64,000 nucleotides of DNA, taken from contig NZ_CP047210.1 of NCBI RefSeq assembly GCF_030408775.1, positions 310,001 to 374,000 on the forward strand. Direction: 5' to 3'. This document shows positions 14,659-33,438 of the stretch, piece after piece (within the stretch, counting starts at the first letter, position 1; every line of letters starts with the position of its first letter). This DNA is from Corynebacterium fournieri (GTDB lineage Bacteria; Actinomycetota; Actinomycetes; Mycobacteriales; Mycobacteriaceae). Position numbers and translations under genes: made by a program. The notes under the pieces were generated by a model, which saw only the letters and a program-made list of their open reading frames with translations, ran no database searches and had not been told where the DNA came from.

Positions 14659-14700
14659 GGCCCACACGCTAAACCAACCGCAACCCCACCCAGACCCAGC

Positions 14701-14741
14701 CTGTGGATAACCCCCGACGCAGGCTGAAAGGTTGTCCACAG
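14701..14741. promoter_or_regulatory. Pair of inverted DnaA-box-like sites
   Basis: TGTGGATAA (14702-14710) and TTGTCCACA (14732-14740) are inverted DnaA-box sequences in an 11-base inverted repeat with one mismatch. They lie upstream of the DUF222 gene and the anchored-repeat locus. Two sites alone do not make an origin; they may be a DnaA-responsive element or a relic of mobile DNA. Confidence 0.45.
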
Positions 14742-14808
14742 CCGTGGGAGACCTCTTGCGGTTTCCCCGACACGGGGGTACGGTTCCGCACTTCACTCTT
14801 ATTGGGAT

Positions 14809-14814
14809 TAATGT
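14809..14814 (+). promoter_or_regulatory. -10 box of the anchored-repeat ABC locus
   Basis: TAATGT ends seven bases before the GTG at 14822, and no Shine-Dalgarno is present in between. The first gene is therefore probably leaderless. No clear -35 box. Confidence 0.5.
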
Positions 14815-14821
14815 TCACTAA

Positions 14822-17307: not shown

Positions 17308-18158
17308 AGATTCCCGCCATTATCACCGCCGCAATGATCGCGGCCGCACCCGTCGCTGCCGCGCAGGTGCCGGACAACGACCCGGCGTTGCAGCAGGTCG
17401 TCGGCGCCGACGAGCAGGTCGTCCCGCTGGGCGAGCGCGCCGTCATCGACGCTGGCCACGCGGACCTGGGCCCCGTCTTCGCCGACGGCAAAATGCAGTT
17501 CCTGGTGCGCGACGACACGCAGGACACGCCCGTGTGGCGCCACCTCGAGGACGTGGTCTTCGCCGTCGGCGACGGCGCGAAGCAGACTCTGCCGGAGACC
17601 GACCAGTTTGCGTTCACCGGTGCGAAGCCGGGGGCCGAGGTGTGGGTGATCCCGCAGACTGAGGTTGCCGGCGTGCCGTGGCTGGGGTGGAACTCGCAGG
17701 CGCCGTCGCTTCTGGAACGCTCCGCCAACGGGATGAGCCTGGAGTTCGGCGGGCACGAGGGCCCGGGCCAGTTCTCCCTGTTTGTCCAGCCCGGCGGGTT
17801 CCACGAGCCGCAGCAGCTGTGGAACGAGCAGGAACCCGGCACGCAGTCGATGTGGGTGGAGCCGAACACGCACACCCACGCCAACTGGGTGTTCACCGAG
17901 CCGGGCGCCCACCTGGTGGGGGTGCGCGCGACGGTGGAGGACCAAGATGGCACCGTGCACACCGACGAGCAGGTCGTGCGTATCGCCGTGGGTGTGGACC
18001 CGGCGGAGGCGGCGGATGCGACGTTCGGCGAATTCCGGGCTGAGGGGCAGGCCGGCGCAGAGCAGCAGAACAACGGCCTGAAAATCGGGCTGCTGGCGGG
18101 CGCGGGCGTGCTGCTTCTCGCTTTGATTGCGCTGTTTGTTGTGCGGGGCCGCCGATGA
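17304..18158 (+). CDS. Membrane-anchored choice-of-anchor M domain protein
   Basis: Protein of 284 residues with a signal peptide (about 1-20), one choice-of-anchor M domain (HADLGPVFADGKMQFLVRDD to the NTHTHANWVFTEPGAHLVGV motif) and a C-terminal membrane helix followed by RGRR (KIGLLAGAGVLLLALIALFV). There is no LPxTG-like motif, so it should stay in the membrane by this helix. It overlaps the genes on both sides by four bases, which implies balanced production with the binding protein and the ATPase. Three His in five residues (HTH plus neighbours) suggest metal binding; that is inference. Confidence 0.78.
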   Translation: MKIPAIITAAMIAAAPVAAAQVPDNDPALQQVVGADEQVVPLGERAVIDAGHADLGPVFADGKMQFLVRDDTQDTPVWRHLEDVVFAVGDGAKQTLPETDQFAFTGAKPGAEVWVIPQTEVAGVPWLGWNSQAPSLLERSANGMSLEFGGHEGPGQFSLFVQPGGFHEPQQLWNEQEPGTQSMWVEPNTHTHANWVFTEPGAHLVGVRATVEDQDGTVHTDEQVVRIAVGVDPAEAADATFGEFRAEGQAGAEQQNNGLKIGLLAGAGVLLLALIALFVVRGRR

Positions 18159-18907
18159 GAAGGATTGAGGTGCGCGACCTGGCGGTGTCGTATCCGGGCC
18201 GCGACGTGTTCCGCGGGGTGGACCTCACGCTGCGCGGCGGCGAGTTCGTCGGCCTGCTCGGGCCCAACGGCGCGGGCAAGACCACCCTCATGCGTGCGGT
18301 GCTAGGCCTTATCCCCGCTGACGCGGGGACGGTCTCCGCCGGCAGGCGCCCGGTGCGCAAGGTGGTGGGGTACGTGCCGCAGGCGCACAACGTGGCCTGG
18401 GATTTCCCCATCGACGTCTACGACGCCACGCTCAACGCCACCCTGGGCCAGCGCCCGTGGTGGCAACGCGCTGGCGAGCGCGAGCACCGCGCCGCCGAGC
18501 GAGCTTTGGAAATGGTCAACCTGACCGACCTGGCCGCGCGCCCAATCCACGACCTGTCCGGCGGCCAGCGCCAGCGTGTGCTCATCGCGCGCGCCCTGGT
18601 GCGGCGGCCGGGCATGCTGCTTCTCGACGAACCGTTTACCGGCCTGGACATCCCCACCACCGAGCACCTGCTGCGGCTGTTCCGCCGCCTGGTGGACCGG
18701 GGACTCGGCGTGGTCATGTCCACCCACAACATCGCCGAGGCCATCGATTCCTGCGACCGCTTGGTGCTGTTCAACCGTGGTGTTGTCGCCGATGCCGCGA
18801 CGCATGAGCTTAACGATGACGCCCCGTGGACCCGCACCTTCTCCGTCGACGAGGATTCGCCGTGGCTGCGCGGCGTGCGAGCGCATTTGGAGGCTGTCCG
18901 TGCCTGA
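18155..18907 (+). CDS. Anchored-repeat ABC transporter ATP-binding protein
   Basis: ABC ATPase of 250 residues. Walker A is GPNGAGKTT, the Q-loop YVPQAHNVAWDFP, the signature LSGGQRQRVLIARA, Walker B MLLLDEPFTGLD and the switch His is in MSTHNI. The W-D-F-P after the Q-loop is the same feature as in MntB, marking it as a Mn/Zn-type importer ATPase. The start overlaps the upstream stop; the stop overlaps the permease start by eight bases. Confidence 0.9.
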   Translation: MRRIEVRDLAVSYPGRDVFRGVDLTLRGGEFVGLLGPNGAGKTTLMRAVLGLIPADAGTVSAGRRPVRKVVGYVPQAHNVAWDFPIDVYDATLNATLGQRPWWQRAGEREHRAAERALEMVNLTDLAARPIHDLSGGQRQRVLIARALVRRPGMLLLDEPFTGLDIPTTEHLLRLFRRLVDRGLGVVMSTHNIAEAIDSCDRLVLFNRGVVADAATHELNDDAPWTRTFSVDEDSPWLRGVRAHLEAVRA

Positions 18908-19769
18908 GATTTCGTTTGTGCAATTCCTGGCCGACATGGCCAACCCCCAGCTGGCGTTTCTGCCGCGCGCGCTGGCGGCCGCGGTAATCGCGGCGGTGCT
19001 GTGCGCGGTGGTGGGCTGTTTTGTGGTGCTGCGCGGCATGGCCTTTATCGGCGACGCGGTGGCGCACGCCGTCTTTCCGGGCATCGCGGTGGCGTTTGCG
19101 TGGCAGGTCTCTGTGTTGTTGGGCGGGGCGGTGGCCGGTGCGATTGTCGCTGTGCTGATCGCGGTGATGTCGCAGCGGCGCACGATCAAAGAGGACTCGG
19201 TGATCGGCATCGTGTTCACCGCCGCGTTCGCTTTCGGCTTGGTGGTGATCTCCAGGGCGGAGGGCTACACCGCCTCCGTCAGCTCGTTCCTGTTCGGCTC
19301 GCTGACAGGCGTCAGCTCCGCCACACTGGCCATCCACGCCGTCGCCGGCGCGTTGATCGTGGCCGTGGTGGTGGCGCTTCGCCCGTGGCTGACGGCGGTG
19401 GCACTGGACCGGGAGACCGCCCGCGCGATGAACCTGCCGGTCGCCGGCCTGGATCTGGCGCTGTACCTGTGCGTGACCTTCGCGGTGGTGCTGGCTGTGC
19501 AGACGGTGGGCAACATCCTGGTGGTGGCGCTGCTGATCACCCCGGCCGCCGCGGCGCGGCTGTTTACGGACAAGCTGGGCGCGATGATGTGCATCGCCGC
19601 CGCGTTCGGCGTGGCCGGCAGCGTGGCGGGGGTGTGGCTGGCGTGGTCTTACGACTCGCCCACGGGCGCGACCATCGTTTTGTCCGTGACCGTCATCTTC
19701 GCGCTGAGCTGGCTGTTCGCCCCGAAGCGCGGTGCACTCGCTGGCTGGCTTCAGGGGGTGAAACGATGA
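18900..19769 (+). CDS. Anchored-repeat ABC transporter permease
   Basis: ABC-3-family metal permease of 289 residues with about eight hydrophobic segments. The family signature GMAFIGDAVAHAVFPGIAVA is at about residues 43-62, and RTIKEDSVIGIVFTAAFAFG marks the cytoplasmic loop. The GTG at 18900 is chosen because it overlaps the ATPase stop (GTGCCTGA), as all genes in this locus overlap; the frame is open further upstream inside the ATPase gene. It should carry the metal, probably zinc, across the membrane. Confidence 0.88.
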   Translation: MPEISFVQFLADMANPQLAFLPRALAAAVIAAVLCAVVGCFVVLRGMAFIGDAVAHAVFPGIAVAFAWQVSVLLGGAVAGAIVAVLIAVMSQRRTIKEDSVIGIVFTAAFAFGLVVISRAEGYTASVSSFLFGSLTGVSSATLAIHAVAGALIVAVVVALRPWLTAVALDRETARAMNLPVAGLDLALYLCVTFAVVLAVQTVGNILVVALLITPAAAARLFTDKLGAMMCIAAAFGVAGSVAGVWLAWSYDSPTGATIVLSVTVIFALSWLFAPKRGALAGWLQGVKR

Positions 19770-22045
19770 AGCGATTCGTTGCAGCAGCAGCCGTAGTGGC
19801 GCTCACGCTCGCGGCCGCGCCGCTTGCGCAGGCCGCGGAGCACAACCCCGGCGACCCGGGCCACAGCGTGGAACTGGGGAAGATCGACCACCCATGCGCT
19901 GGGCGCAAACTGCTCTACCACTCCCACAACGACGCGCTCTACGGCACCTACAAAAACGACAAGCTCACCGTGATGGCGGTGGACGGCCAGCAGGTCACCG
20001 ACCAGGAAAAGGTCTGCTTCCGCCTTGCCCCGGACGCCGACGCCGACGGCAACGACGTGTCCACCTTGACCGTGCCTGAGGACGGCTCCCTGGACTTCCT
20101 CGGCGAGCCCGGCAGCACCGTGTGGGCCGCGCCGCAGTCCGCGGACTGGACCGACAGCTGGCGGCCCATCTGGTCTGGCCTGGGCGCCTTCGACCCCGCG
20201 CACGAGGCGGGCGAGATCCCGGATAACTTCGTCGACGACGTCGTGCACTTCGACCTGGTGGACATGGACGGCCCCGGCGACGTCAACGTGTTTTTCTCCT
20301 CGCGCGTGGGCGATCCGGAGCGGCTGTTTAGCTCCGCCGAGGAGGACATGCGCACCATCACCTACGACGTCGGCGGCCACGGCCACTTCACCTGGACGTT
20401 TTCTGAACCGGGCATCTACGAAATGACCTGGCAGGGCCGCGCCGAGCTCGACGGCGGCGGCACGGAGCGCTCCGAGCCGGTGACCCAGTACTGGCTCGTC
20501 GGCGACGACGCCACCGTCGGCCTGCCCGAGGGCACCACCACCGATCTGCGCACCCCGAAGTCTGCGGAGGAGACCGCCTCGCCGACCGCGACTGCGCCGA
20601 CCTCGACTGCGCCGACGACGACTGCGCCGACCTCGACTGCGCCGACGACGACTGCGCCGACGTCGAACACCACCACTTCAGCGCCGCCCACCACTTCGCG
20701 CGCGCCGAAGCAGACCACGTCGCGCCCGGCGGCAGCGGCGGACAAGCGCACGCTCATCGAGGCGGGCCACATGGATATGGCGTTGGCGGCCGAAGGGTCG
20801 CAGTTAAGCGCCATGCTTATCGACGACTCCGACCCCCACAACCAGGCCAAACGCGAATCCGGCTCGTTCGTGTTCGCCGTGCCGGACGCGGCGCGCAAAA
20901 CTCTGCCGGACAGCGCGCGAGGCAGCTTCCCCGGTGAGCCCGAGACGATGTGGATCCTGCCGCAGGCGCAGGAAAAGGGCCTGCCGTGGCTGGGCTTTTC
21001 CACCACCCGCGTCGGTGCGAACGCGCTGGCAGACGGCTCAAAGATCGATGTGAGCATGCGCGACGTCAACGGTCCTGGGCGAATCTTTACCTGGCACGAG
21101 GACCTGCAGGGGCTGCGCATCGAGCTCGACTCCGCAGACGAGAACAAGACGCTGAAGTACCCCGTCAACGCCCACGACCACCAGGGCTTCGGATTCACCG
21201 ACCCCGGCGTGTACACCGCCACCTTTGCCTTCCGCGGCACTGCGGCGTCCGGCGAGGAGTTTACAAAGGAGCTCGTGGCCACCTTCGCCGTCGGCGACGA
21301 GGCTGTCACCGCGGCGCGCGATGGCAACTTGGAGGCCGACGCTGGTGCAGGTGGCGGCGGCAAGCTCACGCTTCCCGACGCTTTAGCCTCCGGCCTGCGC
21401 TCCCTGGAAAAGGAGATCAAAAAGGCCGGCGACACCCTCGCCCCGCTCGCACGGAAGAAGGACGCCCCGCAGACGTCCTCGGCCGCTCCGACGCCGGCAG
21501 CCCCGGCACCGGCAGCCCCGGCAGCTCCGGCAACGGCGGCTGCGCCTCCCGCTGCACCGCCGCAGCGCCCGGCAACCGATGCGGCCTCGGCCGCGCAGCC
21601 AAAGCAGGATCGGGCAGCCCAGCCCGCCCCGCAGCGCTCGCAGCGTCAGGCCCAATCCTCCGGCAGCAGCGGGAGCGCGTCGCGGCAGTCGCGTTCTGAC
21701 GGCAGCTCGTCCGGTTCCGCGTCCGGCAAGTCCAGCGCGAAGTCCTCGGGGTCGTCGCCTACCTCCGAGCGGGCCACGGAACATGCGCTGGCAACCCAAG
21801 CTGCAGCGCCGAGCAGCACCGGCGGTGCGGCGAGTGGTGCGGCTGGCGGCGGCATCCATTCGTCTTTGGACTCCAGCGACACCAGCGGCCAGCAGCCGCA
21901 AAACGAGCCGCAAGACAACTCCGCTACGGCGGGCGGGTTCTGGGCGGGCCTTGCCATCGGCGTCGGTGTCATGGCGCTGCTCGGCGGGTGCGTGCTGTTC
22001 GTCGCGGCGGCGCGGTTGTTGAAGAAGGTGGAGCGGAGCTCGTAG
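19766..22045 (+). CDS. ABC-transporter-associated repeat protein with two choice-of-anchor M domains
   Basis: Large exported protein of 759 residues. After a signal peptide (LTLAAAPLAQA) come domain 1 (about 25-260, with DVGGHGHFTWTFSEPGIYEM), a Thr/Pro linker made of TAPTS and TAPTT units, and domain 2 (about 335-520, with NAHDHQGFGFTDPGVYTATF). A long Ala/Pro/Ser/Gln/Gly-rich region follows, then a membrane helix (FWAGLAIGVGVMALLGGCVL) and a KK-containing tail. The low-complexity part could span the thick envelope. It overlaps the permease stop by four bases. No sortase motif is seen. Proteins of this type occur only beside such transporters; the ligand is unknown. Confidence 0.8.
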   Translation: MKRFVAAAAVVALTLAAAPLAQAAEHNPGDPGHSVELGKIDHPCAGRKLLYHSHNDALYGTYKNDKLTVMAVDGQQVTDQEKVCFRLAPDADADGNDVSTLTVPEDGSLDFLGEPGSTVWAAPQSADWTDSWRPIWSGLGAFDPAHEAGEIPDNFVDDVVHFDLVDMDGPGDVNVFFSSRVGDPERLFSSAEEDMRTITYDVGGHGHFTWTFSEPGIYEMTWQGRAELDGGGTERSEPVTQYWLVGDDATVGLPEGTTTDLRTPKSAEETASPTATAPTSTAPTTTAPTSTAPTTTAPTSNTTTSAPPTTSRAPKQTTSRPAAAADKRTLIEAGHMDMALAAEGSQLSAMLIDDSDPHNQAKRESGSFVFAVPDAARKTLPDSARGSFPGEPETMWILPQAQEKGLPWLGFSTTRVGANALADGSKIDVSMRDVNGPGRIFTWHEDLQGLRIELDSADENKTLKYPVNAHDHQGFGFTDPGVYTATFAFRGTAASGEEFTKELVATFAVGDEAVTAARDGNLEADAGAGGGGKLTLPDALASGLRSLEKEIKKAGDTLAPLARKKDAPQTSSAAPTPAAPAPAAPAAPATAAAPPAAPPQRPATDAASAAQPKQDRAAQPAPQRSQRQAQSSGSSGSASRQSRSDGSSSGSASGKSSAKSSGSSPTSERATEHALATQAAAPSSTGGAASGAAGGGIHSSLDSSDTSGQQPQNEPQDNSATAGGFWAGLAIGVGVMALLGGCVLFVAAARLLKKVERSS
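20591..20665 (+). repeat. 30-bp tandem repeat, 2.5 copies, in the Thr/Pro linker
   Basis: Two identical 30-base units (20591-20620, 20621-20650) and half of a third encode TAPTSTAPTT repeats. The exact identity at the DNA level suggests recent slippage, so the linker length may vary between strains. Confidence 0.85.
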
Positions 22046-22047
22046 TA

Positions 22048-22191
22048 GAGCAGGGACTCCTTGTTGAGTACGACCCTTTACACGGCCACGTCGAGGGCAA
22101 TAACCTGCGAGGGAGACATATTGGAGTGTTTGATGCCGTAACAGCAGGAAGAATCGGAGATGCAGTGAGGGGGAGACGGATCGATGTTTAA
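22048..22191 (+). pseudogene. C-terminal fragment of a colicin-E3/cloacin-type rRNase toxin
   Basis: In the +1 frame the DNA codes VEYDPLHGHVEG, then RGRHIGVFDAVTAG and RGRRIDV before a stop at 22189-22191. This matches the end of the colicin E3 cytotoxic domain (EWDSQHGELEG..HLGSFDPKTG), including its catalytic D-x-x-H-x-x-x-E spacing (here codons at 22072, 22081 and 22093). No ATG, GTG or TTG lies in frame between the end of the previous gene and this stretch, and the frame upstream is only a shadow of that gene. The export and receptor parts are missing. I read it as the tail of a polymorphic toxin left by a deletion or insertion next to rplJ. Confidence 0.6.
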
Positions 22192-22405
22192 ACCTTTCGT
22201 TGAGCGGTGCCTCGAGGGCAGCGCAAAGCCGAGCGAGATTGACACTTGGGTGGATGCTTGGCACGAATGCGCAGCGGACAGTGAGGGCCTGACGCTGGAC
22301 CAATACCTCGGGTTTACCGAGCAGGAGGGCGCAATCTGGGCGCGGTACCCGATGAAGCTCGACGAAATCCTCGAGCGCAGGCGACACCAACGACAACCCG
22401 CATAG
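22184..22405 (+). CDS. Small acidic protein, probable immunity/antitoxin partner of the E3-type fragment
   Basis: Protein of 73 residues (MFKPFVERCLEGSAKPSEID; WVDAWHE; LDQYLGFTEQEGAIWARYP), predicted helical, with no signal or membrane segment. GGGGGAG (22168-22174) lies ten bases before the ATG. The start overlaps the end of the toxin-like frame by eight bases, the usual arrangement of a toxin and its immunity or antitoxin gene. The sequence is unlike the classical colicin E3 immunity protein, so the role rests on position and size. The frame is intact, so it may still give protection against related toxins. Confidence 0.55.
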   Translation: MFKPFVERCLEGSAKPSEIDTWVDAWHECAADSEGLTLDQYLGFTEQEGAIWARYPMKLDEILERRRHQRQPA

Positions 22406-22425
22406 TCGCGCCCCGCACTCGCGAT

Positions 22426-22455
22426 TTGGCCAAACACCCAACCACCCGCTAACAT
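22426..22455 (+). promoter_or_regulatory. Promoter of rplJ-rplL
   Basis: TTGGCC (22426-22431) and TAACAT (22450-22455) are 18 bases apart. Transcription would start near 22462, giving a leader of about 258 bases before rplJ. Confidence 0.55.
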
Positions 22456-22461
22456 CCCCTA

Positions 22462-22720
22462 CCGAAGTTTGAACGGCCCGCAAAGGCCGAGCTCAAGTTT
22501 CACCGAAGACCGTCGGTCACTCTCGAGAGGGAGTCGAAGGTGCTCCACTCCAGGGGCCGACCCACGCAGGAGAAACGCGGCACACTACGAAACGTATGCC
22601 TCGTGCTTCTGCACGGGGCATTTTTGTTTGAATACGTCAGCTTCTTGCGAAGCAAACGTCGACAAGCAATATGCTCCGGGCGGATTGAACAACATGAAGT
22701 ATCGGAAGGAGGCGTGTGTC
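22462..22720 (+). promoter_or_regulatory. Ribosomal protein L10 leader with attenuator
   Basis: The 315-base gap before rplJ holds a structured leader, as expected for the L10 leader family to which the L10-L12 complex binds. It contains several GC-rich inverted repeats (for example around CGGCCCGCAAAGGCCG at 22475-22490) and ends in the terminator hairpin at 22596-22621, about 100 bases before the start. Excess L10-L12 would favour the terminator. Assignment is by position, length and the terminator; I did not trace every conserved base. Confidence 0.6.
22596..22629 (+). terminator. Attenuator terminator in the rplJ leader
   Basis: ATGCCTCGTGC pairs with GCACGGGGCAT (11 pairs, one G-U) around a TTCT loop, followed by TTTTTGTTTG. 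It lies inside the leader, upstream of the rplJ start. Confidence 0.8.
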
Positions 22721-23242
22721 ATGGCAAACCCGAAGAACACTGCGGACCTTGCAGCTCTGAAGGAGAAGTTCGCTGAGGCGGATTCCCTCGTGCTGACTGA
22801 GTACCGTGGCCTGACCGTCGGCCAGCTCCAGCAGCTGCGCGGCGATATGGGCTTCGATGTCGAGTACCACGTCGCCAAGAACACCCTCATCAAGATCGCT
22901 GCGAACGAGCAGGGCATCGAGGGTCTCGATGATCTTCTCACCGGCCCGACCGCCGTCGCGTTCATCAAGGGCGACGCTGCTGTCGACGCTGCGAAGGTGA
23001 TGAAGAAGTTCAACAAGGACCACGACGCGTTCGTGATCAAGGGCGGCTACATGGACGGCAACGTCCTGGACGCTTCCCAGATCGACGCTCTGGCCGAGAT
23101 GGACAACCGCGAGACCACCCTGGCCAAGATCGCTGGCGCATTCGAGGGCTCTCTGGCAAAGGCAGCCGGCCTGTTCCAGGCTCCGGCATCCAAGACGGCC
23201 CGCCTTGTCGCTGCACTGCAGGACAAGCAGGAAGCCGCATAA
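22721..23242 (+). CDS. rplJ: 50S ribosomal protein L10
   Basis: L10 of 173 residues, base of the L7/L12 stalk. It has the N-terminal rRNA-binding part (LVLTEYRGLTVGQLQQLRGD; AKNTLIKIAANE) and the C-terminal helix that binds L12 dimers (QAPASKTARLVAALQDKQEA). The start is set by AAGGAGG about ten bases upstream; the frame is open far into the leader, but no other start has a ribosome site. Confidence 0.96.
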   Translation: MANPKNTADLAALKEKFAEADSLVLTEYRGLTVGQLQQLRGDMGFDVEYHVAKNTLIKIAANEQGIEGLDDLLTGPTAVAFIKGDAAVDAAKVMKKFNKDHDAFVIKGGYMDGNVLDASQIDALAEMDNRETTLAKIAGAFEGSLAKAAGLFQAPASKTARLVAALQDKQEAA

Positions 23243-23294
23243 ACACACTTTTACATCCGGGCTGTAAACGCCCACCAACAGAAAGGAAGCCACA

Positions 23295-23684
23295 ATGGCT
23301 AAGCTCACCAAGGACGAGCTCATCGAGCAGTTCAAGGAAATGACCCTCATCGAGCTCTCCGAGTTCCTGAAGGAGTTCGAGGAGGTCTTCGACGTGACCG
23401 CAGCTGCTCCGGTTGCTGCTGTCGCTGCAGGCGCTCCGGCCGCTGGCGGCGAGGCTGCCGCTGAGGAGAAGGACGAGTTCGACGTCGTTCTCGAGGACGC
23501 TGGCGACAAGAAGATCGGCGTGATCAAGGTTGTCCGCGAGCTGGTTCCGGGCCTTGGCCTGAAGGACGCCAAGGAAATGGTCGAGGGTGCCCCGAAGGCA
23601 ATCCTCGAGGGCGCCAACAAGGACGACGCCGAGGCTGCCAAGACCAAGCTCGAGGAGGCTGGTGCAAAGGTCACCCTCAAGTAA
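23295..23684 (+). CDS. rplL: 50S ribosomal protein L7/L12
   Basis: L7/L12 of 129 residues, the flexible stalk protein that recruits translation GTPases. It has an N-terminal dimerisation domain ([20 protein letters not shown]), an Ala/Gly hinge ([20 protein letters not shown]) and a C-terminal domain with [29 protein letters not shown] precedes the ATG. A strong terminator follows, ending the rplJL unit before the accessory island. Confidence 0.97.
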
Positions 23685-23707
23685 GAGCTTTTTGCTTGAC
23701 GACGAAC

Positions 23708-23744
23708 ACCCCCGTCGCCGGTATTCACACCGGCGGGCGGGGGT
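23708..23744 (+). terminator. Terminator after rplL
   Basis: ACCCCCG pairs with CGGGGGT, enclosing a second stem GCCGGT / ACCGGC; TTTCG follows. It separates rplL from the island. Confidence 0.8.
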
Positions 23745-23813
23745 TTCGCGTGTCTGGGGGACGAAACGCGTGTATTTTCGGGCGCAAAACGTGCTACCCG
23801 GAGGAGTGCACCT

Positions 23814-24320
23814 TTGATTTGCTACGAGATTCTGCCCGCGATTCGAACGGCCATCTTTATGTATGACGAGTCTGTCCACGCGTTGCGCGTGACTGAGACT
23901 CAAGACTTCAGCGAGTTCGACGGCCGGGCGTTCGAGGTGTTGGAGGACCGGAAGGAAGTCGATGGTTCGGACATGCCGCAGTATGGCCTGACGGCGGCAC
24001 TGGGGGCATTGGTGGCTGATGAAGAGAAGGCACCCGCTATCCGTGAGGCGTTAAATCGAGGTGGGGCGAAGATTGCGGAGGCGACGTTTGTCAGCCAGTT
24101 CGGCACTTACTACGGGTTCCGCGCCTTCAACTTGTACGAGGAGACGCCCGAGGCACCGGTGTTCCGCACCCGCACTACGCCGTCGAACCCTGACCTGTGG
24201 AGGAAGCAGTTTTACACCCCGCAGTTTGCGGAGTGGCTGAAGGCGAACTTCGACACCCGCGGGCTAAGCATCAACAGGGTGGAACGCGACCCATACTTCT
24301 ACCGCCCGGACCGCACCTAG
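23814..24320 (+). CDS. Hypothetical protein, first gene of the rplL-rpoB island
   Basis: Protein of 168 residues starting at TTG (GGAGGAG at 23800-23806, seven bases upstream). It reads MICYEILPAIRTAIFMYDES and later FGTYYGFRAFNLYEETPEAP and NPDLWRKQFYTPQFAEWLKA. No signal peptide, membrane helix or known catalytic motif. The mixed alpha/beta look, small size and presence in an array of similar small genes suggest an immunity-type protein, but I do not recognise the family. Confidence 0.6.
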   Translation: MICYEILPAIRTAIFMYDESVHALRVTETQDFSEFDGRAFEVLEDRKEVDGSDMPQYGLTAALGALVADEEKAPAIREALNRGGAKIAEATFVSQFGTYYGFRAFNLYEETPEAPVFRTRTTPSNPDLWRKQFYTPQFAEWLKANFDTRGLSINRVERDPYFYRPDRT

Positions 24321-24328
24321 AGCGTTTT

Positions 24329-24381
24329 CGGAAAACGCTGGACATCCGTCTGGGATTTCGGCACGCTGGGTTGCAACGGTG
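24329..24381 (+). repeat. Island leader repeat, copy 1
   Basis: Fifty-three bases that match 25982-26034 at about three positions in four, without gaps. The best conserved core is TTTCGGCACGCT (24356-24367). It lies just before the start of the gene at 24403. One frame of both copies encodes similar short peptides (KTLDIRLGFRHA here), so it could be either a shared regulatory leader or the relic of a gene end. Confidence 0.6.
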
Positions 24382-24402
24382 ACCCGCCTGGAGGGAGGCG
24401 TT

Positions 24403-24993
24403 TTGAACGAGTTGGTAAACGAATTCGCAGCATCCGTAGGGCTCCACACCCCGGTGCCGTCGCGCTGGGAGGAAATGCCCGATGATTTGCTGGAGCATTA
24501 CATCGTGGGTATGACGGAGGCTGTTCGGCGAAATGAGTACACGCCAATTGGGGTTGACCAGATGGTGTGTGCCGTCAACGAGTTTCTCAAGGCACGGCAT
24601 CATCGCTTCTTCGATGAGTTTGAAGAGATCTACTACGCGGTGCCTACCCTGACACCCCGCGACCAGGTGTTTTTCTCGTTGGACCGGTTGGCGGGGACGA
24701 AGGGACCATTGCTGGACCGGATGCTTGAGATGTATATGACGGATCGTCGCAGCATCGGGTCCACTAGCGAAATGATCAAAGAGTATTTCCAGCTCATGGT
24801 GGCCCGCAAGGGAAAGCAGCGCCACTGGGATCTCATCGCGCAAACCGCGGATACGCAGCGGGATATCGAGATGCTCGTTCTGTTCTCCAATAAGTTCAAG
24901 AAGAAATTGGATCGTCGCGGTGTGAATGCGTGGATACCTGAGCTTGATATCACGCAACGCGTAATCAGCGTCCCACCCACTACTGAGGATTAG
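24403..24993 (+). CDS. Hypothetical helical protein, paralogue of the gene at 25418
   Basis: Protein of 196 residues, starting at TTG 24403 after GGAGGGAGG (24390-24398). The frame is open from GTG 24379, but that start would put the ribosome site inside the gene. The C-terminal 120 residues are clearly related to the gene at 25418: RHHRFFDEFEEIYYAVPTLT, DRLAGTKGPLLDRMLEMYMT, YFQLMVARKGKQRHWDLIAQ and TADTQRDIEMLVLFS align with it. It is soluble and mainly helical. No family recognised. Two copies in one array suggest duplication and divergence, as in immunity loci. Confidence 0.6.
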   Translation: MNELVNEFAASVGLHTPVPSRWEEMPDDLLEHYIVGMTEAVRRNEYTPIGVDQMVCAVNEFLKARHHRFFDEFEEIYYAVPTLTPRDQVFFSLDRLAGTKGPLLDRMLEMYMTDRRSIGSTSEMIKEYFQLMVARKGKQRHWDLIAQTADTQRDIEMLVLFSNKFKKKLDRRGVNAWIPELDITQRVISVPPTTED

Positions 24994-25001
24994 GAGCCCC
25001 A

Positions 25002-25403
25002 ATGATCATTCCGTTTTATGTCGCATTTAGCCAGGACGAATACGAGCAAGCGCAAGCGTCCGAAGCAGAGTCACGCCGGGACACGATCACGGAGGCGCTT
25101 GAGACGTCGAACCGTCCGGTGGCGGATATTGACCAGTTCTTCGGCGGTGTTGTCGAGGAATTGAAAGCCAGCCTTGATGAGGAAACTGCCAACAGCATCG
25201 TCTTCGGCGCCGCGGATTGGGACGGCGAAAACCTGACCGACGGGATGCGCATCAACACGCCAGACCAGGTAGGCAGCTTCGCCGAGGCGTTGGAGAGCGT
25301 TGAGCCGGAGGACTTCGACTCTCCCGACGCCGTGGAAACACTCATCGAGTTCTACACAGCAGCAGCGCAGCGTGGCGACGCCGTTGCGGTGTACTTCAGC
25401 TAG
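25002..25403 (+). CDS. DUF1877-like small protein
   Basis: Protein of 133 residues (MIIPFYVAFSQDEYEQAQAS). The second half, with NSIVFGAADWDGENLTDGMR, TPDQVGSFAEALESVE and FYTAAAQRGDAVAVYFS, resembles the DUF1877/YfbM family, which ends with a similar FYxxAAxxGDAV motif. Members are cytoplasmic and poorly understood; some stand in toxin-immunity arrays. AGGAG precedes the ATG, eight bases after the previous gene, so the two are probably one operon. Family call is by eye. Confidence 0.5.
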   Translation: MIIPFYVAFSQDEYEQAQASEAESRRDTITEALETSNRPVADIDQFFGGVVEELKASLDEETANSIVFGAADWDGENLTDGMRINTPDQVGSFAEALESVEPEDFDSPDAVETLIEFYTAAAQRGDAVAVYFS

Positions 25404-25417
25404 AGGAGATTCTCGCG

Positions 25418-25939
25418 ATGGCGGCACTACCTACTCGATACGACACGGTCAGCGACGAAGAGCTGGATGCCTTTGTTTCCGATCTCACTGATCAACTCGC
25501 GGTATCCGACCGTGACTTAGATGCGGTGTCCGGCCTGGCCCGAGTCGTCGATGAGCATCTTCGTCCAAGGCATACGAAGCACTTCGACACCATCTACCGC
25601 TGCTATCTTGCGGAACCGCGGTTCGCAGTGCGCTTCCACATGTTCCAGTGCCTTGACCGCCTGACCGCGCACGACCCTGAATTGCTGGACCAGATGTTGG
25701 AACTCTACGAGCAAGACCACCGCACGGTCGACGCGCCGTACCCACGCGAAGAGATCAAGGGCTTATTCCAGTACCTCTTTGCCACGAAGGGGCATCAGCA
25801 TCACTGGGATGCGGTAGCGCGGACCGCCAACACCGCGGCTGATCTGGATATGCTCAAAGCCTTGTCTTACAAGCCGAGAGAGACCAATACCAACGGCCTC
25901 GATACCTGGCTGCCCGGGCAAATCAGCTCCGAACATTAG
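25418..25939 (+). CDS. Hypothetical helical protein, paralogue of the gene at 24403
   Basis: Protein of 173 residues (MAALPTRYDTVSDEELDAFV). It shares with the gene at 24403 the blocks RHTKHFDTIYRCYL, CLDRLTAHDPELLDQMLELY, YLFATKGHQHHWDAVARTAN and TAADLDMLKAL. GAGGAG precedes the ATG and the gap to the previous gene is 14 bases, so it closes a three-gene unit. No signal peptide or membrane segment. Unknown function; immunity-type protein is a guess from context. Confidence 0.6.
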   Translation: MAALPTRYDTVSDEELDAFVSDLTDQLAVSDRDLDAVSGLARVVDEHLRPRHTKHFDTIYRCYLAEPRFAVRFHMFQCLDRLTAHDPELLDQMLELYEQDHRTVDAPYPREEIKGLFQYLFATKGHQHHWDAVARTANTAADLDMLKALSYKPRETNTNGLDTWLPGQISSEH

Positions 25940-25981
25940 ACACTACTGCCGTTATGGCGGACCATCTGAACAGGATGTTTG

Positions 25982-26034
25982 CCGAAAACGGTGGAAATCT
26001 TTGCGGAGTTTCGGCACGCTTGACCGCAATGGTG
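25982..26034 (+). repeat. Island leader repeat, copy 2
   Basis: Related to 24329-24381 over 53 ungapped bases; the core TTTCGGCACGCT is identical (26009-26020). It lies 31 bases before the gene at 26066. The shared frame here reads KTVEIFAEFRHA and then stops. Confidence 0.6.
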
Positions 26035-26065
26035 TGATTCCGATGAGCGTCAGGAGGCCGACGCG

Positions 26066-27025
26066 ATGAGTGGTCCGACCCGAAAGCAGCTTGTGGAGCG
26101 TTGGGAGGACGCCTGCACGCCTGAGATGTTGCTCGCCCCGTCGCCGTTCGGCTTGTTTGATGGCCGGGAAGATTTTCGTGGTTTTCACTGGACGTACCCG
26201 TTGGATAAGTGGGGGTTTCCGAAGAAGGTGTTTTCGGTCAGCGGGCAGACGGTTGACAATGTTGATCTCAGTTATGCGGAGATCAGTCCGTTTACAGCCC
26301 GAGAATTCACGCTGACTAATAGTTACGCTAAGCGGGCGAAGATCTTCGTGGCCGACTGGGTGCATGGCAGTGTGGCTGACTGCGAGTTTGAGCGTTGCAC
26401 GGTGAAAGGTAGGATGCCCTGGCTTAAGACGACTGTGACTAATTGCGTGTTTCGGGCGTGCAAGTTTCCGGAGGTCTTTGCTTGGGGAGCGCGCTACGAC
26501 AATTGCCAGGCCATTGACATGCGGTTGAAGGGGCCGGTAGGCGGAGGACTTAACAACCCGGTGTTGACCAATGTGACGGTGAGCGGCAAGTGGAAAGAGT
26601 GCAGTCTTGAAGAGACGGTCGAGGGGGATCAGCTCGTTGGCTGCGATTTCAGCGAGGTTGAATTTGGCACGGCCAGCTTCAAATACGTGGATATGCGCAA
26701 GGTGAAAATCCCGGCAGAGCTGCAGCGCCTCACTGTGCTGAACTGGGAGGATATTCGCGGACGCGTGGTGGAGCTGGTGAAGGAATTACATGAGGCGTCT
26801 TCCCAGGGGGAAGAAGCGTTTAAGCAGTCGAGCTTGGCGCTGATCTTCATGGAGGACGACTTCAGGGGACAACACGACGAAGCACCACGGCCCCGTGGCG
26901 CCCGATATTGCCTTGAACTCGATGCCTGGGCCGACTGGGGGCATAGTCACGACTACCTGTTGGGGTTGTACCGCGACGCGGGGGCGGAGTTCATGCGTGA
27001 CCCGTTTGAAGAAAGTGAGGACTAA
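26066..27025 (+). CDS. Pentapeptide-like beta-helix protein, paralogue of the gene at 27886
   Basis: Protein of 319 residues. The middle part (about 60-215) shows short repeated units rich in Phe, Asp, Cys and Asn (VDNVDLSYAEISPFTAREF; SVADCEFERCTVKG; VGCDFSEVEFGTASFKYVD), as in pentapeptide-type right-handed helices. The C-terminal 100 residues form a helical domain with LNWEDIRGRVVELVKEL and PRGARYCLELDAWADWGHSH, which recurs in the gene at 27886. No signal peptide. AGGAGG precedes the ATG. Such beta-helix proteins can bind DNA gyrase or toxins; no such activity can be shown here. Confidence 0.6.
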   Translation: MSGPTRKQLVERWEDACTPEMLLAPSPFGLFDGREDFRGFHWTYPLDKWGFPKKVFSVSGQTVDNVDLSYAEISPFTAREFTLTNSYAKRAKIFVADWVHGSVADCEFERCTVKGRMPWLKTTVTNCVFRACKFPEVFAWGARYDNCQAIDMRLKGPVGGGLNNPVLTNVTVSGKWKECSLEETVEGDQLVGCDFSEVEFGTASFKYVDMRKVKIPAELQRLTVLNWEDIRGRVVELVKELHEASSQGEEAFKQSSLALIFMEDDFRGQHDEAPRPRGARYCLELDAWADWGHSHDYLLGLYRDAGAEFMRDPFEESED

Positions 27026-27027
27026 AG

Positions 27028-27438
27028 ATGAGTATTAATGCAGGGTTTGAATACATCGACGGTGACTGGGAGATCGGCGATCCGGGTATTGGCCCCGAGG
27101 AAGACTGGATGATCAGCGTCGCCGATCTGGACATGTGTTTCATCACCATCAGCACCGCCGACGGTAATAAAGAGTACTTTTTCGGCGCGAACCCCACCCT
27201 TGTGGACGGGGTTGAGCCGGAGCACGTCCCTGACTACGACATCGAGAGGTTCGACGCATTCTTCGCCGAGCGTTACCCGGAGGCGAAGGACGGCATCGCG
27301 GAGTTTGTGCGCAAGTACCGCATTATGTCCACGGACACCGAGAGTAAGTTTGACGACGCGGCCAGCGACGGCGGCGACCTCGTTGCGTTGTGGTGCGAGA
27401 CGTTGGGGCTGCCGAACCCGCTGAGCGCCGCTGCTTAG
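27028..27438 (+). CDS. Hypothetical acidic protein
   Basis: Protein of 136 residues (MSINAGFEYIDGDWEIGDPG; SVADLDMCFITISTADGNKE; FDAFFAERYPEAKDGIAEFV). Very acidic and soluble, with no recognised motif. The ATG is two bases after the previous stop with GAGGAC just upstream, so it is co-translated with the beta-helix gene. Acidic, small and in an array of the same kind, it fits an immunity protein, but this is inference. Confidence 0.55.
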   Translation: MSINAGFEYIDGDWEIGDPGIGPEEDWMISVADLDMCFITISTADGNKEYFFGANPTLVDGVEPEHVPDYDIERFDAFFAERYPEAKDGIAEFVRKYRIMSTDTESKFDDAASDGGDLVALWCETLGLPNPLSAAA

Positions 27439-27450
27439 GGCTGATTAAAG

Positions 27451-27882
27451 ATGTCTGATACCCCGGCAAAGCAACCTGGTCGCGTCGTTCCGTGGAGGTG
27501 GCCAATCGATCCGGATGTGCTCGAGCTCTCACTGTCGTGTGTGCCTGATTGGGTGCCGTCCGAGTACCGCGAATTTTTCGACTCGTACAACTCGTTCAAT
27601 TTCGAACACGGCGAGTGGCTCTATCCGGAGATTCCGCCGGGTGATCCTTTGAGTATCAAGTCGATCCTGAGCAGTGTCCGCGAGGAAGCCGAGGCGTTCG
27701 GAGACGACCCTGACGCCTGGTTCCCGGTCGCGATCGTTGGTGATGGCGCGTACGCCGTGTACCACCGCAACGACGACGGTTCGGTCGAGTTTGGCCGCTA
27801 CCACTTCTGGGACAGGCAGTACCTGGACGGGCCGTATCCCAGCATGGCCGAGTGGATGCGCACCTACGGGGTGGAGCTGTAG
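27451..27882 (+). CDS. SMI1/KNR4 (SUKH)-like protein
   Basis: Protein of 143 residues. The layout WVPSEYREFFDSYNSFNFEH, then WFPVAIVGDGAYAVYHRNDD and GRYHFWDRQYLDGPYPSMAE, resembles the SUKH fold: an early PxxYxxFLxxxNG-like helix, a central GDG strand and an acidic FWD strand before a final helix. SUKH proteins are frequent immunity factors against contact-dependent nuclease toxins. It stands four bases before the next gene in a probable four-gene operon (26066-28635). Family call is by eye. Confidence 0.5.
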   Translation: MSDTPAKQPGRVVPWRWPIDPDVLELSLSCVPDWVPSEYREFFDSYNSFNFEHGEWLYPEIPPGDPLSIKSILSSVREEAEAFGDDPDAWFPVAIVGDGAYAVYHRNDDGSVEFGRYHFWDRQYLDGPYPSMAEWMRTYGVEL

Positions 27883-27885
27883 ATC

Positions 27886-28635
27886 ATGGAATTGCATGCT
27901 GTGCGTTACGACGATCGCACGTTCGACGAGCCCAGCGTCGACAACATCAACTTTTCGACGGTCCGATTCGAGTCCTGCACCATCACCCGCCCGCGCGGGA
28001 ACCCGGGCAAGGTCAACGATATTGCGTTCATAGATACTGATTTGTCGGCCCCAGAATTTGGCTTCCGTGCCGACTGGTTGAGCACCGTTACCGGTTCCAC
28101 CCTGCGCGATGTGGTGATCGAGGGGCGCGGTGCACAGTTTCCAATTCGCGCGCGTGTGCTGGATTCGACGATTACTGGCGAGCTGCGCAATGTCGGTTTT
28201 GGCGAGCACTACCGCTACGACCAGCTCGACGGCGTCGACTTGTCCGGGTGCAAGCTGGAAAACGTCAGTTTCCAGGGCATCCCGATGGAGCGCGTGAAGC
28301 TTTCCCCGGAGGACGAGGCGCTGGTGGTCGAGGATTGGGCGTCGGTCGCAAACGACGTGTACTCGGTTGTTCGGGAGGCGATGGCGAGTCCCGACCAGAA
28401 GGTCGAGTACGCGTCCATCGAGGTTTTCGACGCCCTGTCGCAGGACGCATCGCTGTCCCGCAGCTCCAACAGCGGATTCAGTAGCGACGATTCGCTCGAC
28501 TACGACGAGAGCCGCGGCGCGCGGTATGTCCACGAGCTCGCATTCACCGACAAGCCGGAGTGGTTCATGGACGTGATCCACTCGCTATACCGCAAGGTTG
28601 GCGACGGGCGGCTGGTTCCTGTCCTGTATCAGTAA
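27886..28635 (+). CDS. Pentapeptide-like beta-helix protein, paralogue of the gene at 26066
   Basis: Protein of 249 residues, the shorter partner of the gene at 26066. Repeat-like units include FDEPSVDNINFSTVRFESC and LDGVDLSGCKLENVSFQGIP. The C-terminal domain has VVEDWASVANDVYSVVREAM and ESRGARYVHELAFTDKPEWF, which align with the paralogue. The ATG is three bases after the previous stop with no good ribosome site, so translation is probably coupled. Last gene of the island; the DUF3068 gene follows with its own promoter. Confidence 0.6.
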   Translation: MELHAVRYDDRTFDEPSVDNINFSTVRFESCTITRPRGNPGKVNDIAFIDTDLSAPEFGFRADWLSTVTGSTLRDVVIEGRGAQFPIRARVLDSTITGELRNVGFGEHYRYDQLDGVDLSGCKLENVSFQGIPMERVKLSPEDEALVVEDWASVANDVYSVVREAMASPDQKVEYASIEVFDALSQDASLSRSSNSGFSSDDSLDYDESRGARYVHELAFTDKPEWFMDVIHSLYRKVGDGRLVPVLYQ

Positions 28636-28672
28636 CGGTAGTTCGCAGCGCTGGCGCGCCCACCGGCTGCGC

Positions 28673-28678
28673 TACACT
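28673..28678 (+). promoter_or_regulatory. -10 box of the leaderless DUF3068 gene
   Basis: TACACT ends eight bases before ATG 28687 with no Shine-Dalgarno between. This promoter is at the right edge of the accessory island. Confidence 0.5.
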
Positions 28679-28686
28679 TTCCCACC

Positions 28687-29625
28687 ATGCTGCCCACTTC
28701 CCGCATTCTTTCCGTGCTACTCGCCGGCGTCGGTGCTGCGCTGGTGGTGGCGGGGCTGCTGGCGCCGAGCGTGCTGCTTTCCGGCAACCGCCTGCCGTTG
28801 GCGCTGGGGGAGGCCACGTGGACCATCACGGACCCGAACGGCACCCGCGAGGGCGAGGCGGCGCCGGTGACGCGCCAGCTGCACATGGAGATCCAGGAGC
28901 CGTCCGACGGTGACACGGCGAGCGTGCGCGTGGGCGACACGCTGCGGGCGGGGGAGTCCGGTTCCGACTTCAATGACCTGCTCACGGCGTCGACGTGGTC
29001 GTACGCCGTGGACCGCGTTTCAGGTGCCGCGCAAGGCCCGGCGGAGGCGCTGATGGTCATGGGCATGCCCGCAACACAGGTGCCTATCGACGGCGCGTGG
29101 TTGACCTTCCCCGCCCCCGCGCCGCAGGACACCGTCCAGGTCTTCGACGCGGTGCTGCGTGGCGCGGCGCCTGCGGAGTTTGCCGGTGAAGAGGAGATCG
29201 CCGGGCGTACGGTGTACCGCTATACCCAACGCATCGCGCCGACGAACGTGGCCATGCGCTACGCCGACCCGCGCAACACGCTCACGCTCGAGGACGACAA
29301 CGGCGAGCCGCAGCGCACCTTCCTGCACCACGCCGCCGAGCGCGAAATCCTGGTGGATCAGGAAACCGGCGTGGTCGTGGGCATCGACGAGAAGGTGGAC
29401 GACTACTACGCCGACGCAGAAGGCAACGGCGTGAAGAACGTGGTCACCTATGACGGGGTGATGGACCGGCAGGACGTCGAGAAGCTTGTGCGCAAAGTGG
29501 ATGATGCGCAGACCGCCGCCGCGGACCGCGGGCTGTGGCGCGTGCTGGCCTGGGTCGGTGCGGCGCTGACCCTTGCGGGCCTGGCGGGCGCGCTGCGGCC
29601 GGGGCGTGCGGCGCGTCGCGATTGA
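28687..29625 (+). CDS. DUF3068 (PorA-family) envelope protein
   Basis: Protein of 312 residues with an N-terminal membrane segment (ILSVLLAGVGAALVVAGLLA), a large outside domain and a C-terminal membrane helix (VLAWVGAALTLAGLAGALRP). This two-helix layout and blocks such as AGRTVYRYTQRIAPTNVAMR and LVDQETGVVVGIDEKVDDYY are those of actinobacterial DUF3068 proteins, annotated as porin PorA-like. It is found before rpoB in other corynebacteria, so it is part of the ancestral order. The function is not settled; an envelope role is likely. Confidence 0.82.
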   Translation: MLPTSRILSVLLAGVGAALVVAGLLAPSVLLSGNRLPLALGEATWTITDPNGTREGEAAPVTRQLHMEIQEPSDGDTASVRVGDTLRAGESGSDFNDLLTASTWSYAVDRVSGAAQGPAEALMVMGMPATQVPIDGAWLTFPAPAPQDTVQVFDAVLRGAAPAEFAGEEEIAGRTVYRYTQRIAPTNVAMRYADPRNTLTLEDDNGEPQRTFLHHAAEREILVDQETGVVVGIDEKVDDYYADAEGNGVKNVVTYDGVMDRQDVEKLVRKVDDAQTAAADRGLWRVLAWVGAALTLAGLAGALRPGRAARRD

Positions 29626-29718
29626 CCGCGCGCGGACGACGGGTGGTAGGCTTCCGGCAGCAACCGCACGAGTGACCCAGACGGCATCGGGCAACCCGGC
29701 GGACCGCAGGCGGGGGCC

Positions 29719-29747
29719 TTTACAAACGGGGGAGATTACTCTATGGT
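29719..29747 (+). promoter_or_regulatory. Promoter of rpoB-rpoC
   Basis: TTTACA (29719-29724) and TATGGT (29742-29747) are 17 bases apart, about 210 bases before rpoB. A second candidate is the extended -10 TGCTAACTT near 29871-29879. The 333-base gap otherwise holds a leader with small hairpins and no gene. Confidence 0.55.
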
Positions 29748-29958
29748 TGTTCTTTGCGCTGGAAGCCGTCTCCAGTACGCGTAGAGAGCCTTGTGCAACG
29801 GATTGAGAAAATCCGATTTGACAAGGTGATTTTGTTGTCTCTGGGGGCGGGTCTTCTAAAGCAGACCGAATGCTAACTTATCCTGCGGAAATGCCGCCGG
29901 GCCGCGAAGCCAGACGCGGTGTGGCGAGCCTCCGCCAGAGGTGCTGGAAGGACCCAAC

Positions 29959-33438
<3,480 letters not shown>

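What the first reader, a model, noticed from the sequence alone, without database searches (positions are those of the whole stretch)
23814..28635. Island of eight small immunity-like genes between rplL and rpoB
Where other corynebacteria have rplL, the DUF3068 gene and rpoB close together, this window has eight small cytoplasmic genes in two or three operons. They include two paralogous pairs (24403/25418 and 26066/27886), a SUKH-like and a DUF1877-like protein, and no toxin. Arrays of diverged immunity genes without toxins are known to protect against toxins of neighbours. The helical pair and the beta-helix pair are not families I can name. Together with the toxin tail at 22048, this marks rplA-rpoB as a cassette hotspot.
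Basis: partly seen in the sequence, partly recalled or inferred. Interest (0 to 1): 0.75.

Follow-up and report, generated by a model that had tools for sequence, protein, structure and literature searches.

The report
Orphan toxin-immunity gene array
This Corynebacterium carries a shelf of eight intact genes, most of which in related species sit behind large toxin genes and probably block those toxins, but here the toxins are missing, so the array most likely shields the cell against toxins fired by its neighbours.

Summary
The eight-gene island between rplL and the PF11271 (DUF3068) gene is real. It is a clean, AT-richer 4.9-kb insertion (about 23758-28668); none of the six closest relatives examined has these genes at the site. 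It consists of three modules plus one single gene. In other corynebacteria each module follows one kind of RHS toxin tip: w2-w3-w4 (helical, DUF1877, helical) behind Tox-REase-7 tips; w5-w6 (beta-helix-like plus a small acidic protein) behind a tip without a Pfam name; w7-w8 (SUKH plus beta-helix-like) behind LHH nuclease tips. In Corynebacterium sp. Marseille-P3884, and by all signs in p3-SID1145 (rplL side at a contig end), the same genes lie at this chromosomal site within an ESX (type VII) and RHS toxin locus. The window's genome has none of the three tips. All eight genes are intact, with dN/dS well below 1 (dS saturated). Another species has a toxin-less array with overlapping content at the same site, and a second orphan array lies elsewhere in this genome. 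The kind (heterogeneous polyimmunity locus) is known; I found no description of the beta-helix-like immunity family or its toxin tip. Protection is untested.

The parts
23758..28668 (.). Inserted island; approximate junctions with the empty site seen in G002 and G038
   Evidence: Pairwise alignment with empty sites; GC 58.3% vs 65.6%
23814..24320 (+). w1, 168 aa, immunity-array gene of unknown family, toxin partner unknown
   Evidence: 83% identical gene in the toxin-less array of G220 at the same site; 57% paralogue in this genome's second orphan array; no Pfam match at E<=1
24403..24993 (+). w2, 196 aa (TTG start), helical protein, probable immunity protein; module M1
   Evidence: 67% identical to the gene 2 nt behind an RHS/Tox-REase-7 toxin in L073; alpha-solenoid model, pLDDT 81
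25002..25403 (+). w3, 133 aa, DUF1877; module M1
   Evidence: PF08974 3.5e-8; follows w2 behind the toxin in L073 and L093
25418..25939 (+). w4, 173 aa, paralogue of w2; module M1
   Evidence: 32% identical to w2, 71% to the L073 and L074 copies
26066..27025 (+). w5, 319 aa, beta-helix-like (sub-threshold pentapeptide) protein with helical C-terminus in a poor model; module M2
   Evidence: 55% identical gene directly behind an RHS toxin in L119; w5 family near 6 of 6 M2-tip sites; model pLDDT 57 with regular strands 61-206
27028..27438 (+). w6, 136 aa, acidic, no family; module M2
   Evidence: Near w5 at 6 of 6 M2-tip sites, on the other strand in G141; pI 4.05
27451..27882 (+). w7, 143 aa, SUKH-1 protein; module M3
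   Evidence: PF09346 5.1e-6; next to LHH-nuclease RHS tips at 6 of 10 sites
27886..28635 (+). w8, 249 aa, beta-helix-like protein, paralogue of w5; module M3
   Evidence: Pentapeptide_4 9.6e-5, below cut-off; fused to a SUKH-like part in one 402-aa protein in L116
24324..24381 (+). 58-nt direct repeat ahead of module M1
   Evidence: 74% identical to 25977-26034; role unknown
25977..26034 (+). 58-nt direct repeat ahead of module M2

Best explanation
The island is an orphan heterogeneous immunity array. Each module encodes cytoplasmic proteins that bind and block one type of nuclease tip carried by RHS toxins, which ESX/T7SS-bearing corynebacteria deliver into neighbours: M1 (w2-w3-w4) against Tox-REase-7 tips, M2 (w5-w6) against an unnamed tip, M3 (w7-w8) against LHH (HNH/EndoVII) tips; w1 against a tip not identified. 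Such arrays arise when RHS toxin tips are exchanged and old immunity modules are kept beside the locus; here the array is kept without toxin or dedicated secretion genes and most likely protects against non-kin toxins. Shown: insertion, intact ORFs, module structure, matching of modules with tips in other species, absence of the three tips in this genome. Inferred: secretion of the toxins, binding and neutralisation, present-day protection.
For: In L073 (Corynebacterium sp. p3-SID1145) w2-w3-w4-w5-w6 follow a 1714-aa RHS toxin with a 2-nt gap, behind EccC-like and WXG100 genes, with PF11271-rpoB downstream; w7-w8 lie at the other end of the same contig. In G070 (Marseille-P3884) the tip is GIY-YIG with a weakly Imm51-like gene behind it, and w7-w8 and w2-w6 stand in front of the ESX genes as an orphan array. 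Tip-side searches of 242 genus genomes: Tox-REase-7 tips with E<=1e-22 have the w2/w4 family next in 6 of 6 genomes (4 of them built the profile); the M2 tip has w5 and w6 at 6 of 6 sites (3 built the profile); LHH tips have w7 and/or w8 at 7 of 10 sites (3 built the profile). Tox-REase-7/HEAT and LHH/SUKH are pairings listed by Zhang et al. (PMC3482391). This genome has none of the three tips and no match to the L073 RHS toxin. G220 has a toxin-less array w5-w6-w7-w8...w1 at the same site. dN/dS 0.04-0.24 for window copies, no stops.
Confidence: 0.83

Rival explanations
1. Non-functional remnant: an ESX-RHS toxin locus once lay here, the toxin was lost, and the immunity genes are drifting without a role.
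For: No toxin, WXG100 or dedicated ESX genes were seen at the site. w1 lacks the gene of about 211-220 aa that follows it in G220 and in this genome's second array (likeness of those two genes judged by eye). No sigma-70-like promoter in the island by a simple scan, though that scan is weak for this genus.
Against: Eight of eight ORFs are intact at 57-83% identity to relatives; dN/dS 0.04-0.24 with saturated dS. G220 keeps a toxin-less array at the same site.
Confidence: 0.12
2. Mixed array: only the first gene of each module (w2, w5, w7) is immunity; the others (w3, w4, w6, w8) are accessory, such as regulators, chaperones for the toxin tip or decoys.
For: The first gene behind the tip is the classical immunity position; w7 is found without w8 within 1.5 kb at 5 of the 7 occupied LHH sites.
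Against: The genes travel together without the toxin, which fits immunity better than a toxin chaperone; w8-like and SUKH-like parts are fused in L116; long DUF1877 proteins are the next recognised gene behind weaker Tox-REase-7-like tips at 5 of 9 sites, so DUF1877 can hold the immunity position; at one LHH site (G033) a w8-like gene stands without w7.
Confidence: 0.3
3. Anti-phage defence island or a core function peculiar to this lineage.
For: Small clustered genes of odd composition; one weak NCBIfam match of w5 to HalA of the Hailong anti-phage system (2.6e-5, 23.6 bits against a cut-off of 250).
Against: No PADLOC match at E<=1 for any of the eight; relatives lie behind RHS toxins; nearest relatives lack the genes at this site.
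Confidence: 0.04

Closest known systems
Heterogeneous polyimmunity loci (Zhang et al. 2012, PMC3482391; passages read)
   Same: Tandem genes of unrelated immunity families without toxin, content varying between relatives, proposed preemptive defence against non-kin toxins
   Different: Built from recognisable 2-3-gene modules traceable to three toxin tips; includes beta-helix-like and DUF1877 genes (words 'DUF1877' and 'pentapeptide': 0 occurrences in the held 300,000 of 357,715 characters); no recombinase gene among the eight
Orphan Rhs immunity genes in Serratia T6SS loci (PMC10539506; passages read)
   Same: Orphan immunity genes kept beside an Rhs locus; one was shown there to protect against a different tip
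   Different: T6SS and Gram-negative; there the Rhs toxin is still present, here it is absent
esaG and tsaI strings of the Staphylococcus aureus T7SS (PMC9484751; passages read)
   Same: Type VII-linked orphan immunity genes in Gram-positive strains lacking the toxin (esaG)
   Different: Many copies of one family by tandem recombination; here several unrelated families
Bacteroidales acquired interbacterial defence islands (search listing only; otherwise recalled)
   Same: Toxin-less arrays of orphan immunity genes gained as islands
   Different: T6SS; mobile with integrase-like genes (recalled); none was seen here
Pentapeptide-repeat proteins QnrB, McbG-like, MfpA
   Same: The w5/w8 profile matches their PDB sequences weakly (8e-4 to 1.6e-2); the SV2 luminal domain matches at 3e-4 to 6e-3
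   Different: Those guard DNA gyrase (recalled); w5/w8 are below Pfam's cut-offs and their relatives sit behind RHS toxin tips

Membership tests
Heterogeneous polyimmunity locus | Tandem immunity genes of structurally unrelated families | tested here: met
   SUKH and DUF1877 above cut-off, helical and beta-helix-like families, all on one strand; immunity role of the unnamed families rests on context
Heterogeneous polyimmunity locus | No cognate toxin gene in the locus or genome | tested here: met
   0 hits in G000 for the three tips and for the L073 RHS toxin; not testable for w1, whose tip is unknown
Heterogeneous polyimmunity locus | Content varies between close relatives | tested here: met
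   Nearest relatives G038, G002, G077, G069 have gaps of 1.33-1.35 kb, G016 and G121 carry an aldehyde-dehydrogenase-cluster gene instead; G220, G035, G070 have other combinations
Heterogeneous polyimmunity locus | Protects against delivered toxins | not testable with these tools
   Needs expression or competition assays
SUKH-1 (PF09346), w7 | Score above the curated cut-off | tested here: met
   27.5 bits against 25.4
DUF1877 (PF08974), w3 | Score above the curated cut-off | tested here: met
   34.2 bits against 22
HEAT-type immunity to Tox-REase-7, w2/w4 | All-alpha helical-repeat fold | tested here: inconclusive
HEAT-type immunity to Tox-REase-7, w2/w4 | Gene next to a Tox-REase-7 toxin | tested here: met
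   For relatives of w2/w4: 6 of 6 genomes with strong tips, 0 of 9 weaker sites
Pentapeptide repeat proteins, w5/w8 | Score above the curated cut-off | tested here: not met
   Best 17.8 against 27 (w5); 22.8 against 38 and 16.2 against 20.2 (w8)
Pentapeptide repeat proteins, w5/w8 | Right-handed beta-helix fold | tested here: inconclusive
   Regular short strands at 61-206 of w5 but pLDDT 57; Foldseek gave no match at E<=0.001
ESX-linked RHS toxin locus | RHS toxin, WXG100 and EccC/EccD genes together | tested here: not met
   Not seen at the site in the window; present in L073, L017/L018 and L097

The most novel reading that the evidence does not exclude
w5 and w8 found a new immunity superfamily: beta-helix, pentapeptide-like proteins that neutralise RHS nuclease tips (perhaps as acidic nucleic-acid mimics), acting in a two-part module with a second protein (w6 or SUKH w7); and the M2 tip is an undescribed toxin domain. 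The rplL-rpoB interval of corynebacteria is a site where ESX-RHS loci and their toxin-less remnants are kept.
Probability: 0.45. Interest if true: 0.68.

Novelty: new member of a known kind. Interest (0 to 1): 0.56.

Why it matters
It ties a toxin-less gene array to specific predicted toxins, module by module, so 'orphan immunity genes protect against neighbours' becomes directly testable in a Gram-positive, type VII-bearing genus. Comparing the window, G220, p3-SID1145 and Marseille-P3884 at one chromosomal site lays out what look like stages of toxin-tip exchange, immunity displacement and toxin loss. It also offers candidate functions for DUF1877 and for a beta-helix-like family, and one toxin tip without a Pfam name.

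Tried and rejected
Anti-phage defence: no PADLOC match at E<=1 for the eight proteins; the HalA match of w5 is far below its cut-off. Mobile carriers: no tblastn match of w5 or w2 in 72,556 plasmid records (the other six were not tried); no relative of A1 or A3 confirmed in viral contigs; no tRNA in 14000-30000 and no Rfam match in 22000-29000. PDB by sequence: no convincing relative of w2/w4, w3, w7, the REase-7 tips or the M2 tips. Foldseek gave no match at E<=0.001 for w2 or w5; the VIA second look gave helical-repeat proteins for w2. A search of 239 order-level genomes with w5/w8 gave 8 weak hits besides the own genome, E 3.5e-6 to 7.6e-4, which I read as general pentapeptide repeats. The named genome scan with the w2/w4 alignment found two loci, L073 and L074. 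Promoter scan: none. The 58-nt repeat had no significant match in the other loci searched; one weak hit upstream of w7 in L090, E 0.24. Idea considered and dropped: array gained by homologous exchange through rplL/rpoB from the G035/G070/G220 clade; the junctions are sharp, and rplL and the PF11271 protein are 100% and 95% identical to G038, so no flank was exchanged. Ancient presence with repeated loss is not excluded.
Full report
What is there. Eight ORFs on one strand run from 23814 to 28635 between rplL (23295-23684) and the PF11271 gene (which I recall as the former DUF3068; 28687-29625), followed by rpoB (PF11271 1.3e-60). I call them w1 to w8. All are free of stops and score as coding, and the number of long open stretches exceeds that of 200 simulated islands (9 against a mean of 2.2, maximum 7). 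w2/w4 and w5/w8 are paralogous pairs (32% and 25% identity). Pfam names only w3 (DUF1877) and w7 (SUKH-1) above cut-off; w5 and w8 resemble pentapeptide repeats below cut-off; w1, w2, w4 and w6 have nothing above a cut-off. No PADLOC match at E<=1. All eight are acidic with negative mean hydropathy (pI 4.05-5.47).

It is an insertion. In 139 of 151 genomes of the genus rplL and rpoB were found on one contig in normal order, so the gap could be measured; 12 were left out (5 without one or both anchors, 5 with the anchors on different contigs, 2 with them far apart). The gap is under 1.85 kb in 81 (3 of them under 1 kb), 1.85 kb or more in 58, and 6.26 kb here. Of the six nearest relatives by rplL and rpoB, G038, G002, G077 and G069 have 1.33-1.35 kb, and G016 and G121 have 2.8-2.9 kb with a gene of the aldehyde dehydrogenase cluster instead. 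Alignment with the empty sites of G002 and G038 puts the junctions near 23758 and 28668, with both flanks colinear. Island G+C is 58.3%, the rest of the window 65.6%. Among 70 stretches fetched from 68 genomes at this interval (56 of the 57 other long-gap genomes, one of them in part only, and 12 short ones), relatives of w2-w8 occurred in one genome, G070. Other species carry unrelated cargo at this site: aldehyde dehydrogenase in 11 loci, short-chain dehydrogenase in 6, ABC-3 transporters in 6, HTH_3 proteins in 7, MFS in 5, Mutator transposase in 3 (counts, Pfam on one representative each; the ABC-3 cluster groups several ORF types, and many single genes were not looked up). So the interval is a hotspot, mostly for other things as far as seen.

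Where the relatives live. The named scan of bacterial genomes with the w2/w4 alignment returned Corynebacterium sp. p3-SID1145 (L073, the same contig as G035:C5) and Marseille-P3884 (L074, the same contig as G070:C27); both are listed as same genus as the window, which is how I place the window in Corynebacterium. In L073 an EccC-like gene, a 256-aa gene and four small genes (three are WXG100 by Pfam) precede a 1714-aa RHS toxin (RHS_repeat, DUF6531). w2 begins 2 nt behind the toxin stop and is followed by w3, w4, w5, w6, a transposase piece, a long DUF1877 gene, the PF11271 gene and rpoB; w7 and w8 are at the start of the same contig. Its rplL lies at the very end of another contig (G035:C4:43-429), so the rplL side of that locus is inferred. 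In G070, where rplL and rpoB are on one contig, the 29.5-kb interval holds w7-w8, other small genes, w2-w3-w4-w5-w6 and a 331-aa gene with a weak, sub-threshold Imm51 match (c56) in front of the ESX genes; the toxin there is like L073's but has a different tip and is followed by a second c56 gene. This is what tip exchange with retention of old immunity would look like.

Modules match toxin tips. From the immunity side, RHS tips beside the families fell into types: Tox-REase-7 (PF15649) in L073, L093, L097 and L100; LHH (PF14411) in L117, L098 and L125; an unnamed tip shared by L118, L119 and L125 (M2 tip); GIY-YIG in G070. From the tip side, profiles of the first three tips were searched in 242 genus genomes and the 1.5 kb behind each match was scanned. 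Tox-REase-7: 9 genomes, 16 matches; in the six genomes with E<=1e-22 the w2/w4 family comes next in 6 of 6 (four built the profile; of the two new ones G135 is a close relative of G026; G226 has a second, partial tip, also with a w2-family gene), while 9 weaker sites in G033 (2), G167 (2) and G120 (5) have none, 5 of them having a long DUF1877 protein instead. M2 tip: 6 sites in 6 genomes, w5 and w6 at 6 of 6 (three built the profile; in G141 w6 is on the other strand; the tips of G133 and G075 contain a stop). LHH: 10 sites in 8 genomes, w7 and/or w8 at 7 (three built the profile), two misses at contig ends and one at a weak match in G221. GIY-YIG, not searched genus-wide: c56 family next at 3 of 3 sites in the loci held (G070, L121, L125). 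At 16 of 16 sites measured a possible start of the immunity gene lies within 83 nt of the toxin stop (the weaker and broken sites were not measured). In L125 several cassettes of RHS end, tip and immunity gene follow one another. In L116 w7-like and w8-like sequences are one 402-aa protein.

No toxin here. G000 has no match for any of the three tips nor for the L073 RHS toxin at E<=0.001; its best EccC match, G000:C1:399233-402469, is 33-50% identical in pieces and I take it for the core ESX system; a second weak match lies at 1405651. Toxin-less arrays recur: G220 has w5-w6-w7-w8, three more genes, w1 (83% identical), a 220-aa gene and the long DUF1877 between rplL and the PF11271 gene; it was not among the genomes with any of the three tips. 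This genome has a second one at G000:C1:1510841-1513662: SUFU (3.8e-25), a w1 paralogue (57%), a 211-aa gene and a c56-like gene.

Kept or decaying? Window copies against relatives give dN/dS 0.04-0.24 with no internal stops; dS is saturated (1.2-4.2), so this shows long-term constraint of the families, not selection on this copy today.

Literature. Zhang et al. 2012 (PMC3482391; table and section passages read) list Tox-REase-7 with ImmHEAT, Imm23 and Imm54 and Tox-LHH with SUKH, both with T7SS (WXG) and RHS, and define homogeneous and heterogeneous polyimmunity loci. PMC10539506 (passages) shows an orphan Rhs immunity protein protecting Serratia. PMC9484751 (passages) describes orphan T7SS immunity genes in S. 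aureus. 'DUF1877' occurs in 2 papers of the library; I read the passage in one (PMC5118866), which is not about immunity, and saw the other in the listing only. Searches for pentapeptide repeats with immunity and polymorphic toxins or T7SS listed nothing whose title or shown abstract start describes such immunity proteins; I read two passages of PMC12419801 and no more of the rest.

How it most likely works. A neighbour delivers an RHS toxin; its nuclease tip enters the cytoplasm; the matching module protein binds the tip and blocks it. The genes come from toxin loci of corynebacteria and are kept as insurance. Context, absence of the three tips and intactness are shown; secretion, binding and protection are inferred. 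Kind: heterogeneous polyimmunity locus, known; new as far as I could find are the module-by-module tip assignment, the beta-helix-like family behind an unnamed tip, and the shared chromosomal site.

Noticed in passing
window 22048-22405: Truncated Cytotoxic tail (PF09000 8.5e-7, positions 34-79 of 80) overlapping a 73-aa ORF (22184-22405); the 73-aa ORF is also upstream of rplJ in G038 and G002, which lack the island. A separate small toxin remnant with a possible immunity gene.
   Followed up: partly
G000:C1:1510841-1513662 (L133:8842-11663): Second toxin-less array in this genome: SUFU, w1-like (57%), 211-aa and c56-like genes; w1-like and c56-like genes stand in the same order in G187 (L134), the c56-like match there split over two frames.
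   Followed up: partly
L095:7398-9542 (G025): A 714-aa ORF made of w2/w4-like repeats (four matches in one frame) lies beside genes that look ribosomal by eye: a candidate polyimmunity protein.
   Followed up: no
L116:8107-9315 (G175): SUKH (w7-like, weak) and beta-helix-like (w8-like) parts fused in one 402-aa protein.
   Followed up: partly
window 24324-24381 and 25977-26034: 58-nt direct repeat, 74% identical, ahead of modules M1 and M2; could be a promoter region or a junction left by module joining.
   Followed up: partly
L016 (G009:C1:205172-205558 and 219896-220282): Two rplL copies 14.7 kb apart in one genome, the first followed by a piece of the PF11271 gene, suggesting a duplication that spans this hotspot.
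   Followed up: no
L117, L121, L125, L135: Strings of RHS-end, toxin-tip and immunity cassettes, at least one further tip without a Pfam match (L117:7992-8513).
   Followed up: partly
L145, L146, L147, L152, L154: Long DUF1877 proteins are the next recognised gene behind weaker Tox-REase-7-like tips, suggesting that DUF1877 is itself an immunity family.
   Followed up: partly
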